From Flavobacteriaceae bacterium (GTDB taxonomy: Bacteria; Bacteroidota; Bacteroidia; Flavobacteriales; Flavobacteriaceae), in assembly GCA_030835825.1 (NCBI GenBank), contig JAURRA010000013.1, forward strand, positions 1-42,394: 42,394 nt of DNA, in the 5' to 3' direction. The translations under genes were made by a program, and so were the position numbers. The notes beneath the pieces are model-generated. The model was not told the origin of the DNA, searched no databases, and saw only the letters and a list, made by a program, of their open reading frames with translations. This document shows, piece by piece, positions 3,373 through 19,056 of this stretch. Numbering within the stretch: position 1 is the stretch's first letter; the number at the start of each line of letters is the position of its first letter.

Positions 3373-4038
3373 ATGACTAATTCCCACGATATTACTTCTG
3401 ATGATGATCACTCAAACTATTCTGCAAAAAATCCAATAAAAGAGGGAGCCTTTGATATCACTCCTGAAGAAAAAATTGCAAAAATAGAAGCTAATATGGC
3501 TGAAATATTAGATGTATTAGGAATGGATCTAACAGATGACAGTCTAAAAGGCACACCGAAAAGAGTAGCCAAAATGTTTGTGAATGAATTATTCGGAGGA
3601 CTTTTACCAGCAAACAAACCCAAAGCATCGACTTTTGATAATGCCTATCGCTATGGGGAAATGTTAGTAGAGAAAAACATCACTGTTTATTCCACCTGCG
3701 AGCACCATTTACTTCCCATCATTGGCAAAGCCCATATCGCCTATATTTCAAACGGGACAGTGGTTGGTCTTTCTAAGATGAATCGGATAGTAGATTATTT
3801 TGCCCGGAGACCACAAGTTCAAGAGCGTTTGACCATGCAAATCGTGCACGAAATGCAAAAAGTCCTTAACACAGAGGATGTAGCTTGTGTCATCGACGCC
3901 AAGCATTTGTGTGTAAACTCAAGGGGCATTAGAGACATTGAGAGCAGCACTGTAACCAGCGAATATGGCGGCCGATTTAAAGAAGCCTCAGTTAAAGCTA
4001 ATTTTTTATCTTACATTCAATTGGATACAGATTTTTAA
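3373..4038 (+). CDS. folE: GTP cyclohydrolase I
   Basis: The protein is cytosolic and converts GTP to 7,8-dihydroneopterin triphosphate, the first step of folate synthesis and also of the queuosine precursor route. It has 221 residues, the usual family length. The zinc ligands of the E. coli enzyme are present as C109 and H112 in STCEHHLLP and C180 in DAKHLCVNSRGI. The first 30 residues are polar and variable, as is common. It is followed after 6 bases by cysS, probably in one transcript with yidD and lgt. queE, a later enzyme of the same 7-deazaguanine route, is encoded at 14006. The identification is secure. Confidence 0.97.
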   Translation: MTNSHDITSDDDHSNYSAKNPIKEGAFDITPEEKIAKIEANMAEILDVLGMDLTDDSLKGTPKRVAKMFVNELFGGLLPANKPKASTFDNAYRYGEMLVEKNITVYSTCEHHLLPIIGKAHIAYISNGTVVGLSKMNRIVDYFARRPQVQERLTMQIVHEMQKVLNTEDVACVIDAKHLCVNSRGIRDIESSTVTSEYGGRFKEASVKANFLSYIQLDTDF

Positions 4039-17280: not shown

Positions 17281-18162
17281 TTATTGTTTATAAATATTAG
17301 AAATTACCAAAACGTGCGGAAAGGTAATGGCCGCCAAAAATGAAAAGAAAATGGTAATAAACACACTGTCATCATCTCTAAAGACAAAATACATCAATGC
17401 TAGCCCAAGTAGCGCTACCAACCAATTGAACAGCGACTCACGCAAATATTTTAAGATTGAAAAGGTACTAATCTCACCATGAAGGAAATTGATTTGATCT
17501 TTCAATGAAGGGATGGCGTGCCAAAGGACAAAGTAGGCCGCAAATCCCCAAATCAATGATGCCGCCTTGAACAACAAAAAGAACAAGAGCAGATAAAACA
17601 ATTCTTCAATCAATCGGCGTTTGATATAATCTTTATCTAGCAAATAACTGCCCAGAATTAAACTCAGTATTCCAAAAAATACTAAACCGTTTGAAAAGAT
17701 GTTCTCGGGTAAAGTATAATGGGTAATATCTAGAATGACAGCAGAAGTATCTGAAAAATTGCAGAAAAACAAAAGCAGTAAAACGGTAAACCCATAGCAA
17801 AAGTAGAATGCACCAACCGCCCAGAGGTTTCCTTGTATTTTTGTAGCCCAATGTTGCTCTCCAAAATGATAGGCACTGAAAAGCACGAACGACGTCAAAG
17901 CCAAAAAGGGCAATTGGTAAAACAGGACGGCCGCCATCAGAATAACCATTAAATAAACCCCTAAAACAGCCCAAAGCTTTGGTTTTCTTTTGGCTAACGC
18001 CTTCCGGATAAGAAATAAATCATTAGAGCCATGAAGTATTCCAACGCTGAGGATAAGTATGTAGCCAAAAACATCGGCGAGCGCAGGAGAAAAATTGATC
18101 GCAACCCACATAAAAACAAATGTTGTAATCAGGCTAAAACTGCGGGATTTTGAATTTTCCAT
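17281..18162 (-). CDS. blh: Beta-carotene 15,15'-dioxygenase, Brp/Blh family
   Basis: A membrane iron enzyme that splits beta-carotene into two retinals, the chromophore of the adjacent rhodopsin. I choose the ATG at 18162 (293 residues). The frame extends 5 codons further to a TTG at 18177, which I reject. The iron-binding histidine set of the family is visible: H44 in GILHGSNDL, H99 and H104 in AYHFGEQHW, H215 in VLWHAIPS, and H283 in FPHVLVI. Eight or so hydrophobic helices are present. It is divergent from the proteorhodopsin with 102 bases between the two ATGs, an arrangement reported in other marine flavobacteria. No carotenoid synthesis genes are in the window. Confidence 0.95.
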   Translation of the reverse strand: MENSKSRSFSLITTFVFMWVAINFSPALADVFGYILILSVGILHGSNDLFLIRKALAKRKPKLWAVLGVYLMVILMAAVLFYQLPFLALTSFVLFSAYHFGEQHWATKIQGNLWAVGAFYFCYGFTVLLLLFFCNFSDTSAVILDITHYTLPENIFSNGLVFFGILSLILGSYLLDKDYIKRRLIEELFYLLLFFLLFKAASLIWGFAAYFVLWHAIPSLKDQINFLHGEISTFSILKYLRESLFNWLVALLGLALMYFVFRDDDSVFITIFFSFLAAITFPHVLVISNIYKQ

Positions 18163-18264
18163 GTAAGATTTTATCAATTGAATAAAATTATTTTCAATAA
18201 AATATCAAATTCTTTATATAATTGCATAAATTTACTCAAACAAAAATCATTAAAAACAATTATT
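18163..18264. promoter_or_regulatory. Shared divergent control region of blh and proteorhodopsin
   Basis: These 102 bases contain only 14 G or C, about 86% A+T. TAAATTTA at 18227-18234 reads the same on both strands and resembles the -7 box, but no TTG at 18-21 nt supports it clearly in either direction (22 nt for blh). I see no obvious operator. The leader before the rhodopsin ATG is A-rich and lacks a Shine-Dalgarno sequence, as is common for flavobacterial genes. Confidence 0.5.
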
Positions 18265-19008
18265 ATGGGATTTTTATCAAATTCAATTTTGTTGGCCGGA
18301 AGCATGCAAAAGCTTGGCGCAACTGATTATGTAGACTTTACATTCTTTGTAGGATGTATGGCAATGATGGCAGCTTCTGCTTTCTTCTTCCTATCCATGA
18401 GTAGCTTTGACAAAAAGTGGAGAACTTCGATCTTAGTATCTGGTTTGATTACTTTTATTGCTGCTGTCCACTACTGGTACATGAGAGATTATTTTGGAGC
18501 ATTCGACGAGTCTCCAACATTCTTTCGTTATGTGGATTGGGTGCTAACAGTGCCGTTGATGTGCGTTGAATTCTACTTAATTCTTAAAGTTGCCGGCGCT
18601 ACCAAGTCATTGATGTGGCGCTTAATTGTATTATCAGTAGTAATGCTAGTAACAGGATATTGGGGCGAAGCTGTTGCTCCAGAAAGTGCAGCTTTATGGG
18701 GATTCATCTCAGGAGCAGCCTATTTTGTTATAGTATATGACATCTGGTTAGGTAAGGCCAAGCAATTGGCAGTAGCTGCTGGTGGTCATGTTCTACAGGC
18801 TCACAAAATCCTTTGTTGGTTCGTTCTAGTTGGATGGGCTATTTATCCATTGGGCTATATGGCTGGTACTGGCGATGGTCAGTGGTATGCTTTTGTAGGT
18901 GACCTAGGTTTAAACATGGACATCATTTACAACATTGGTGACGCTATCAATAAAATTGGTTTCGGTTTAGTAGTTTACTCTTTAGCAGTAAGTTCGTCTA
19001 AAGCTTAA
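18265..19008 (+). CDS. Proteorhodopsin, green-tuned light-driven proton pump
   Basis: A seven-helix inner-membrane retinal protein, 247 residues from the ATG at 18265. The open frame reaches a TTG at 18178, but the extra 29 residues are polar and lie in the promoter region. The key residues align with proteobacterial proteorhodopsin. H69 equals H75, D91 is the proton acceptor (D97), T95 equals T101, E102 is the donor (E108), and K230 in INKIGFG binds retinal (K231). D-T-E is the proton-pump motif, not the N-D-Q sodium motif. The tuning site (position 105) is M99, a methionine, which indicates green absorption as in other flavobacterial pumps. It is monocistronic, with a strong terminator after it. 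Confidence 0.97.
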   Translation: MGFLSNSILLAGSMQKLGATDYVDFTFFVGCMAMMAASAFFFLSMSSFDKKWRTSILVSGLITFIAAVHYWYMRDYFGAFDESPTFFRYVDWVLTVPLMCVEFYLILKVAGATKSLMWRLIVLSVVMLVTGYWGEAVAPESAALWGFISGAAYFVIVYDIWLGKAKQLAVAAGGHVLQAHKILCWFVLVGWAIYPLGYMAGTGDGQWYAFVGDLGLNMDIIYNIGDAINKIGFGLVVYSLAVSSSKA

Positions 19009-19025
19009 TACATTCATTTTCAATA

Positions 19026-19056
19026 AAAGGCTGCACTTCGGTGCAGCTTTTTTTTT
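19026..19056. terminator. Terminator between proteorhodopsin and argS
   Basis: The 7-bp stem GCTGCAC/GTGCAGC (19030-19047) closes a TTCG tetraloop and is followed by nine T on the plus strand. Four A precede it, so it may also serve argS on the minus strand, more weakly. Confidence 0.92.

What the first reader, a model, noticed from the sequence alone, without database searches (positions are those of the whole stretch)
17281..19056. Proteorhodopsin and blh form a compact, divergent light module with a green-tuned pump
Proteorhodopsin has the D91-T95-E102 pump triad, retinal lysine K230 and methionine at the spectral tuning site (M99, equal to position 105). The divergent blh keeps all the histidines expected for iron. 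The two ATGs share a 102-base spacer of about 86% A+T, so one regulator could serve both. Glycines in helix E (G146, G150) leave open whether a carotenoid antenna can dock as in xanthorhodopsin. I could not align this with certainty.
Basis: partly seen in the sequence, partly recalled or inferred. Interest (0 to 1): 0.6.

Follow-up and report, generated by a model that had tools for sequence, protein, structure and literature searches.

The report
Proteorhodopsin gene pair, decayed light switch
This is an ordinary light-driven proton pump gene back to back with the gene that makes its retinal pigment; in most relatives the DNA between them carries a switch shared with carotenoid genes and probably run by a vitamin-B12 light sensor, and in this organism that switch is worn down.

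Summary
The window holds a flavobacterial proteorhodopsin (PR, 18265-19008 +) and a divergent blh (17281-18162 -) across a 102-bp, 86% A+T spacer.

The pair is standard for its family. The D/T/E/K residues, Met at position 105 and the fenestration Gly occur in 106 of 106 distinct PRs compared. The closest solved structure, NM-R1 (77% identical), is zeaxanthin-bound, and the genome has crtI-crtB-crtZ-crtYcd. A bound hydroxy-carotenoid is likely.

The new part is the spacer. In 70 of 90 spacers from outside the window's genus it carries a dyad, TGTTTAA-N16-TTAAACA, over the PR -7 box. The same dyad precedes crtI in 29 of 60 carH-crt loci. Family genomes with a CarH-like B12-photoreceptor orthologue have the dyad in 59 of 61 cases; those with none or a fragment, in 2 of 21. 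I infer that PR-blh belongs to a CarH/LitR-type light regulon.

The window's genus is an exception: no exact dyad in its four genomes, a decayed operator at 18213-18242, and carH intact here but a fragment or not found in sisters. CarH binding is not shown; a TetR_C_23 regulator is the main rival.

The parts
18265..19008 (+). proteorhodopsin gene, 247 aa
   Evidence: PF01036 126.2 bits; D91, T95, M99, E102, G146, K230
17281..18162 (-). blh, Brp/Blh-family beta-carotene 15,15'-dioxygenase, 293 aa
   Evidence: PF15461 133.5 bits and TIGR03753 163.5 bits, both over cut-off; four invariant His
18163..18264 (.). 102-bp spacer between the two start codons, 86.3% A+T, site of the divergent promoters
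18213..18242 (+). decayed copy of the family dyad operator TGTTTAA-N16-TTAAACA
   Evidence: 4 mismatches, ending 22 nt before the PR ATG, in the same register as in relatives
18227..18234 (+). PR -7 box, TAAATTTA (consensus TAnnTTTG)
   Evidence: offset 14 of the dyad, as in 48 of 70 relatives with a dyad
18236..18244 (-). remaining half-site TTTGTTTGA
19025..19052 (+). terminator-like hairpin behind PR
   Evidence: 12 pairs, then a T run; 5 such sites found in this stretch against 1.5 in shuffles

Best explanation
A canonical flavobacterial phototrophy module. Blh cleaves beta-carotene to retinal; the opsin binds retinal at K230 and pumps protons with green light, probably with a zeaxanthin-type carotenoid lying against the Gly146 window. 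In Flavobacteriaceae generally the short spacer is a divergent promoter region covered by a dyad operator (TGTTTAA-N16-TTAAACA) that also covers crtI and other, partly light-protection, genes. The best candidate for the binding protein is the CarH-like MerR/B12 photoreceptor encoded at the head of the crt operon: in the dark it would bind with adenosylcobalamin and block the -7 box; light would release it, so that pump, retinal enzyme and carotenoids switch on together. In the window's genus this control has decayed: one half-site remains at the PR promoter, no exact dyad is left in the genome, and carH is intact in this species but a fragment or not found in sister species. PR and blh here are therefore probably expressed with little or no CarH control. 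Shown by computation: gene identities, residues, the dyad, its sharing, its co-occurrence with carH, its degradation here. Inferred: CarH binding, light dependence, carotenoid binding, expression.
For: Gene and residue identity. Nearest solved structure is zeaxanthin-bound NM-R1; crt operon with crtZ. Dyad in 70 of 90 non-genus spacers, shuffle mean 0.5, maximum 3, with the PR -7 box at offset 14 in 48 of 70, shuffled mean 1.8, maximum 6. Same dyad between carH and crtI in 29 of 60 loci, -7 box at offset 15 in 28 of the 29. Dyad in 59 of 61 family genomes with the CarH orthologue, 2 of 21 with none or a fragment. CarH-like protein with MerR and B12-binding domains, Wx9EH and ExHxxG, PDB match to T. 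thermophilus CarH. Photolyase and FolE among dyad neighbours, as among LitR-controlled genes in Pseudomonas (PMC9758184 passages). Genus: 0 exact dyads in 4 of 4 genomes, 4-5 mismatches at PR.
Against: No binding or expression data. G000 and G023 have CarH but no exact dyad; G082 (81% complete) has 6 dyads and G006 has 1 without a CarH hit. Within PR spacers alone the link to CarH is weak: dyad in 49 of 59 CarH+ against 4 of 9 CarH-, p 0.02, not corrected for relatedness. 20 of 90 spacers lack the dyad; five Polaribacter loci have CarH but no spacer dyad. TetR_C_23 genes carry the dyad at 10 of 74 sites, and 33 of 74 sites lie beside genes outside my reference set. The inverted N16 spacing is neither the 11-bp direct repeats of CarH (PMC8156234) nor the N12 of Pseudomonas LitR (PMC9758184). 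For the carotenoid: Kin4B8 Tyr209, which affects energy transfer, is Gly203 here.
Confidence: 0.68

Rival explanations
1. The dyad is the operator of a TetR_C_23 regulator that controls its own gene, PR-blh, crtI and the rest; CarH only co-occurs with it.
For: 10 of 74 dyads, in 10 of 20 genomes, lie just before a TetR_C_23 gene, most of them about 30 nt away, and an inverted dyad suits a TetR dimer. It could explain G000 and G023 (CarH, no dyad) and G082 (dyads, no CarH hit, but a TetR_C_23 gene with a dyad, L420).
Against: Dyads at crtI or carH are as frequent, in 12 of 20 genomes. The dyad follows the CarH orthologue in 59 of 61 against 2 of 21. The promoter geometry of PR and crtI (-7 box at offset 14 or 15) is seen in 1 of 10 TetR_C_23 dyads. 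The half-site resembles published CarH and LitR half-sites. TetR_C_23 distribution over genomes was not tested.
Confidence: 0.18
2. The repeated TGTTTAA elements are only A+T-rich promoter sequence, not an operator.
For: The spacers are about 85% A+T and TTTG of the half-site overlaps the -7 consensus at carH promoters.
Against: Fixed geometry: 96 N16 pairs against 0.8 expected by shuffling, and TAnnTTTG followed by TTTAA in 3 of 156 background boxes against 40 of 60 carH promoters. 223 exact dyads against 9 for the reversed pattern in 90 family genomes. 9-mer density 10.7 per kb in spacers against 0.13 in other intergenic DNA of the same loci.
Confidence: 0.04
3. In the window's genus the operator is reduced, not lost: one half-site at the PR promoter is enough for CarH control, as single strong half-sites at carH promoters might be.
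For: TTTGTTTGA remains at 18236-18244 and the -7 box keeps its register. G000 has intact carH and TACTTTTGTTTAA before it.
Against: In most carH promoters examined a weaker right half-site is still visible at N16 (at most 2 mismatches in 48 of 59). All four genus members have lost the left half-site at PR (dyad test), and carH is a fragment or not found in the other three (G002 is 55% complete, G001 86%).
Confidence: 0.25

Closest known systems
NM-R1, zeaxanthin-bound proton-pumping rhodopsin (PDB 9jou; source organism Nonlabens marinus is recalled)
   Same: 77% identical, same fold (Z 31.8, rmsd 1.6 over 230 residues), same Gly at the fenestration and same Met at position 105
   Different: The window protein's own carotenoid binding is untested
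KR1, proteorhodopsin of Dokdonia eikasta (PMC12308411, passages)
   Same: Flavobacterial PR reported there to bind lutein and zeaxanthin; Tyr, Met and Thr of its TM6 site are Y198, M199 and T202 here
   Different: KR1 has Asp at the Kin4B8-209 position, this protein has Gly203
Xanthorhodopsin and Kin4B8
   Same: Carotenoid-window Gly (XR G156, Kin4B8 G153) and the conserved Tyr (XR Y207)
   Different: About 28% identical and another subfamily; the window protein is a proteorhodopsin
Bacteroidota proteorhodopsins surveyed in PMC13043013 (passages)
   Same: That paper reports the Gly in all its Bacteroidota PRs of one subtree; here 106 of 106
   Different: Regulation is not treated in the passages read
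CarH of Thermus thermophilus and Myxococcus (PMC8156234, passages)
   Same: MerR plus B12 domain, both signature motifs, repressor gene beside crt genes, half-site compatible with nAnnTnnACAn
   Different: Published operators are 11-bp direct repeats; here an inverted N16 dyad, and the targets include proteorhodopsin and blh
LitR (PplR1/PmlR2) light regulon of Pseudomonas (PMC9758184, passages)
   Same: Photolyase and FolE among the controlled genes; half-site T(G/A)TACA shares 5 of 6 bases with TAAACA
   Different: N12 spacing and the opposite half-site orientation; no rhodopsin among the genes named in the passages read

Membership tests
Proteorhodopsin, green flavobacterial type | Asp-Thr-Glu pump residues, retinal Lys, Met or Leu at position 105 | tested here: met
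   D91, T95, E102, K230, M99; the meaning of Met105 is recalled
Proteorhodopsin, green flavobacterial type | Light-driven proton pumping and absorption near 520-530 nm | not testable with these tools
   needs expression and spectroscopy
Brp/Blh dioxygenase | TIGR03753 over cut-off and conserved His | tested here: met
   163.5 bits against 95.25; His44, 99, 215, 283 invariant in 104 of 104
Carotenoid-binding rhodopsins | Gly at the fenestration (XR156) | tested here: met
   G146
Carotenoid-binding rhodopsins | Conserved Tyr (XR207) and polar residue at Kin4B8 208 | tested here: met
   Y198, T202
Carotenoid-binding rhodopsins | Polar residue at Kin4B8 209 (Tyr, Asp or Glu in the three hydroxy-carotenoid binders of the paper's table) | tested here: not met
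   G203; NM-R1, zeaxanthin-bound, has Pro there, so the feature is not required for binding
Carotenoid-binding rhodopsins | Measured carotenoid binding | not testable with these tools
   needs purified protein
CarH photoreceptors (protein before crtI in this genome) | MerR HTH, B12-binding domain, Wx9EH and ExHxxG | tested here: met
   PF13411 and PF02607; both motifs in the sequence
CarH photoreceptors (protein before crtI in this genome) | NCBIfam TransRegCarH equivalog cut-off (400 bits) | tested here: not met
   74.4 bits; hence 'CarH-like'
CarH photoreceptors (protein before crtI in this genome) | Adenosylcobalamin binding and light-dependent release from DNA | not testable with these tools
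   biochemistry needed
CarH/LitR operators (family dyad) | Half-site compatible with nAnnTnnACAn | tested here: met
   TTAAACA supplies T and ACA in register (consensus read against PMC8156234); four fixed bases, so a modest test
CarH/LitR operators (family dyad) | 11-bp direct repeats | tested here: not met
   dominant spacing is an inverted N16 dyad
Flavobacterial dyad operator (window spacer) | TGTTTAA-N16-TTAAACA with at most one mismatch per half | tested here: not met
   best match 4 mismatches; no exact copy in G000

The most novel reading that the evidence does not exclude
In Flavobacteriaceae the proteorhodopsin-blh pair is directly repressed in the dark by a B12-based photoreceptor (CarH-like) through a dyad operator shared with carotenoid synthesis, photolyase and FolE genes; the window's genus is caught shedding this control, with the operator gone from PR in all four species and the regulator gene broken or missing in the sisters.
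Probability: 0.6. Interest if true: 0.75.

Novelty: new variant of a known kind. Interest (0 to 1): 0.6.

Why it matters
How flavobacteria would switch on proteorhodopsin together with its retinal and carotenoid supply has no named mechanism in the papers I saw. A conserved operator shared by PR-blh and crtI, with a candidate photoreceptor beside crtI, makes the question testable in culturable strains. A genus that has lost the operator but kept the pump would be a natural contrast between regulated and unregulated phototrophy.

Tried and rejected
Sigma-70-type promoters in a 2-kb stretch: 9 found against 5.9 in shuffles, uninformative. My first motif idea, TAAACA-N5-TGTTTA, is enriched (11 of 93 spacers with at least 11 of 12 matches against 0.2 in dinucleotide shuffles), but the dominant geometry turned out to be TGTTTAA-N16-TTAAACA. 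TTTGTTTRA is not enriched across the own genome (125 against 148 for the reversed pattern). PF04116 did not pick up crtZ in G000; its one hit there lies on another contig. crtZ was found by reading the crt operon; it has no Pfam or NCBIfam hit at 0.001, but matches 107 plasmid records, 95 of them Pantoea, at 37.5-44.9% identity in the 12 listed, and in the one opened the gene, annotated only as sterol desaturase family protein, lies beside crtB, a phytoene desaturase gene and crtY.

Selections and dropped rows: duplicates L082, L083, L084, L087, L040 were left out, and the window itself and of the density count; the window, its genus and duplicates were left out of the 90; L009 (carH piece at a contig end) out. 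The 60 carH loci are the 30 best-scoring of each of two searches, so not random. One search covered 50 of the 78 non-genus loci. One search used 28 genomes that I chose. The 74 classified dyads are all those of 20 genomes whose places were printed in the capped list; G113 was printed but not fetched. One search used mononucleotide shuffles. The dyad was found on PR spacers and then tested on other DNA (crtI gaps, genome counts). Three of 60 carH homologues (L230, L232, L293) lack a strict W-x9-EH.

Full report
What is there. The window lies on contig 5 of a 1.62-Mb, 95% complete genome. It carries one proteorhodopsin, 18265-19008 on the plus strand, and blh, 17281-18162 on the minus strand, separated by 102 bp of 86% A+T. 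Most named relatives are labelled as Flavobacteriaceae genera; the closest PRs, 98% and 96% identical, are in MAGs casp40-mb.291 ('Bacteroidetes bacterium') and O_MB241 ('uncultured Flavobacteriaceae bacterium'). A terminator-like hairpin follows PR.

The pump. Among 106 distinct PRs (the window's included), aligned with five solved rhodopsins, Asp, Thr, Met(105), Glu, Lys and Gly146 are present in 106 of 106. Gly146 aligns with XR Gly156, Kin4B8 Gly153 and a Gly in GR; green PR has Phe. PMC12308411 (passages and section 2.3) calls that Gly the primary criterion for a carotenoid site, says that KR1, a flavobacterial PR, binds lutein and zeaxanthin, and shows that the polar residue 208 of Kin4B8 matters; here it is Thr202 (Thr in 96 of 106), with Tyr198 (105 of 106) at the conserved Tyr. 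Kin4B8 Tyr209, which affects energy transfer there, is Gly203 here. An AlphaFold2 model (mean pLDDT 82) matches first 9jou, 'zeaxanthin-bound light-driven proton pumping rhodopsin, NM-R1': 77% identity, Z 31.8, rmsd 1.6 over 230 residues. [quoted passage not shown] that paper is not held. Carotenoid docking is therefore likely and not new; whether the carotenoid acts as an antenna or otherwise is open.

Pigment supply. On contig 8 the genome has, in one run, carH-like, crtI, crtB, crtZ and a CarR-type lycopene cyclase (L202 10520-11416, 9054-10514, 8167-9006, 7704-8153, 7004-7699, all minus). The crtZ assignment rests on protein matches to Pantoea plasmid genes, one of them seen beside crtB, a phytoene desaturase gene and crtY; homologues are in 112 of 149 related genomes.

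Ordinary arrangement. blh is divergent from PR in 98 of 110 loci. PR matches occur in 34 of 149 relatives and Blh matches over the family cut-off in 32 of 149.

A shared operator. The 9-mer TTTGTTTAA occurs 102 times in 9,559 bp of 93 spacers (10.7 per kb) against 14 times in 105,498 bp of other, crudely masked intergenic DNA of the same loci. Its main arrangement is TGTTTAA-N16-TTAAACA: 70 of 90 spacers from outside the window's genus at no more than one mismatch per half, against 0.5 on average and 3 at most in 100 mononucleotide shuffles. The PR -7 box sits at offset 14 of the dyad in 48 of 70 (shuffled mean 1.8, maximum 6).

Tests on other DNA. (i) The carH-crtI gap carries the dyad in 29 of 60 loci, the -7 box at offset 15 in 28 of the 29, one base from its place at PR. 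(ii) Exact dyads occur 2-8 times per genome in 25 of 25 other PR genomes searched (the reversed pattern once each in 4 of the 25) and 0 times in the three genus members in that call. (iii) Among 90 genomes of the family, 59 of 61 with a CarH orthologue of at least 200 bits have a dyad (mean 3.4), 3 of 8 with a weaker homologue, and 2 of 21 with none or a fragment (Fisher p 2e-14; in genomes of at least 2.2 Mb 54 of 55 against 2 of 12, p 3e-9). Relatedness is not corrected for, but apart from the window's genus each genome is from a different genus. In all, 223 dyads against 9 for the reversed pattern. (iv) Of the 74 dyads of 20 genomes, 1 lies inside an ORF of more than 150 aa; neighbours are fasciclin-domain genes 14, crtI 11, TetR_C_23 10, Porph_ging 4, PR-blh 1, carH 1, outside my reference set 33. 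Dyads touch crtI or carH in 12 of the 20 genomes and TetR_C_23 in 10. Twenty regions from five further genomes add photolyase (2), FolE (4), PR (1) and an SDR/TetR_C_23 pair; several neighbours there, such as penicillin amidase, a glucose/sorbosone dehydrogenase and PanB, fit no theme. (v) carH promoters have TAnnTTTG in 53 of 60, followed by TTTAA in 40 of 60, against 3 of 156 background boxes. The left half-site is mostly at -23 (44 of 59) and the best right half-site is at N16 (at most 2 mismatches in 48 of 59), overlapping the start codon, so coding sequence may contribute.

The likely regulator. The protein before crtI has MerR and B12-binding domains, matches T. thermophilus CarH in the PDB, and has W-x9-EH and ExHxxG, the pair said in PMC8156234 (passages) to define CarH homologues; 57 of 60 homologues have both. 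It is far below NCBIfam's CarH equivalog cut-off (74.4 against 400 bits), so I call it CarH-like. The published CarH half-site nAnnTnnACAn is compatible with TTAAACA, and the Pseudomonas LitR consensus T(G/A)TACA-N12-TGTA(C/T)A shares 5 of 6 bases per half; photolyase and FolE are among the LitR-dependent genes there (PMC9758184 passages). Spacing and orientation differ from both. A cobalamin adenosyltransferase is found in G000, G001 and G003 (84 of 99 genomes).

The window is the exception. None of the four genus genomes has an exact dyad (G002 is 55% complete). The best match in the window's spacer is 18213-18242, with 4 mismatches, the -7 box still at offset 14, ending 22 nt before the PR ATG: a decayed operator in register; the three sisters have 5 mismatches. 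carH is intact in G000; in G003 only residues 1-82 match, and nothing is found in G001 (86% complete) or G002. The stretch before crtI keeps TACTTTTGTTTAA in G000 and G003 but reads TACTTTTGGTGCC in G001. A FolE homologue lies in the window (3373-4038) with no near-dyad in the window at 2 mismatches or fewer.

What speaks against. G000, G023, G082 and G006 break the CarH-dyad rule. Within PR spacers the link to CarH is weak (49 of 59 against 4 of 9, p 0.02). Five Polaribacter loci have CarH but no spacer dyad; one of those genomes, G151, has 5 dyads elsewhere. TetR_C_23 genes are themselves dyad neighbours, so a TetR operator remains a real rival, and its distribution was not tested.

Literature. 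Papers holding both CarH and proteorhodopsin: 7, none on PR regulation by title and abstract start; LitR with rhodopsin: 5, likewise. Wider searches (listings, partly capped) showed none by title. PMC3587595 (passages) notes the RpoD promoter consensus before PR in Dokdonia MED134; MerR does not occur in it. PMC7064467 (passages) reports light-induced crt genes in a Chryseobacterium and guesses at a LitR-like regulator. Subscription papers are mostly missing from this library, so this does not prove novelty.

Verdict. The gene pair is a new member of a well-known kind. The dyad operator that ties PR-blh to a CarH/LitR-like light regulon in the family, and its decay here, is the part worth following.

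Noticed in passing
17281-19008; L083, L084, L085: Within the genus PR is 96-98% identical but Blh only 72-75%: the pump is held far more strictly than its retinal enzyme.
   Followed up: no
3373-4038: FolE (GTP cyclohydrolase I) homologue in the same window; folE is a dyad neighbour in four other genomes but has no near-dyad here.
   Followed up: partly
L203 6369-7027; L204 10617-11167: In sister genomes G003 and G001 the place of carH before crtI holds a degraded remnant (G003) or no recognisable carH (G001), with tRNA-like sequence upstream.
   Followed up: partly
L011, L038, L058 PR-blh spacers: Some Polaribacter spacers hold another palindrome, about AATGTTTTANNTAAAACATT, read by eye and one search prints; not tested.
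   Followed up: no
L382, L392, L402, L408, L434, L443: A small protein family of unknown function (up to 142 aa; no Pfam hit for the one tested) recurs beside the dyad in six genomes.
   Followed up: no
L390:2000-2029 and the gene 17 nt downstream: In G037 a dyad precedes a fatty-acid-desaturase-family gene that looks like a crtW-type ketolase (the crtW reading is by eye).
   Followed up: no
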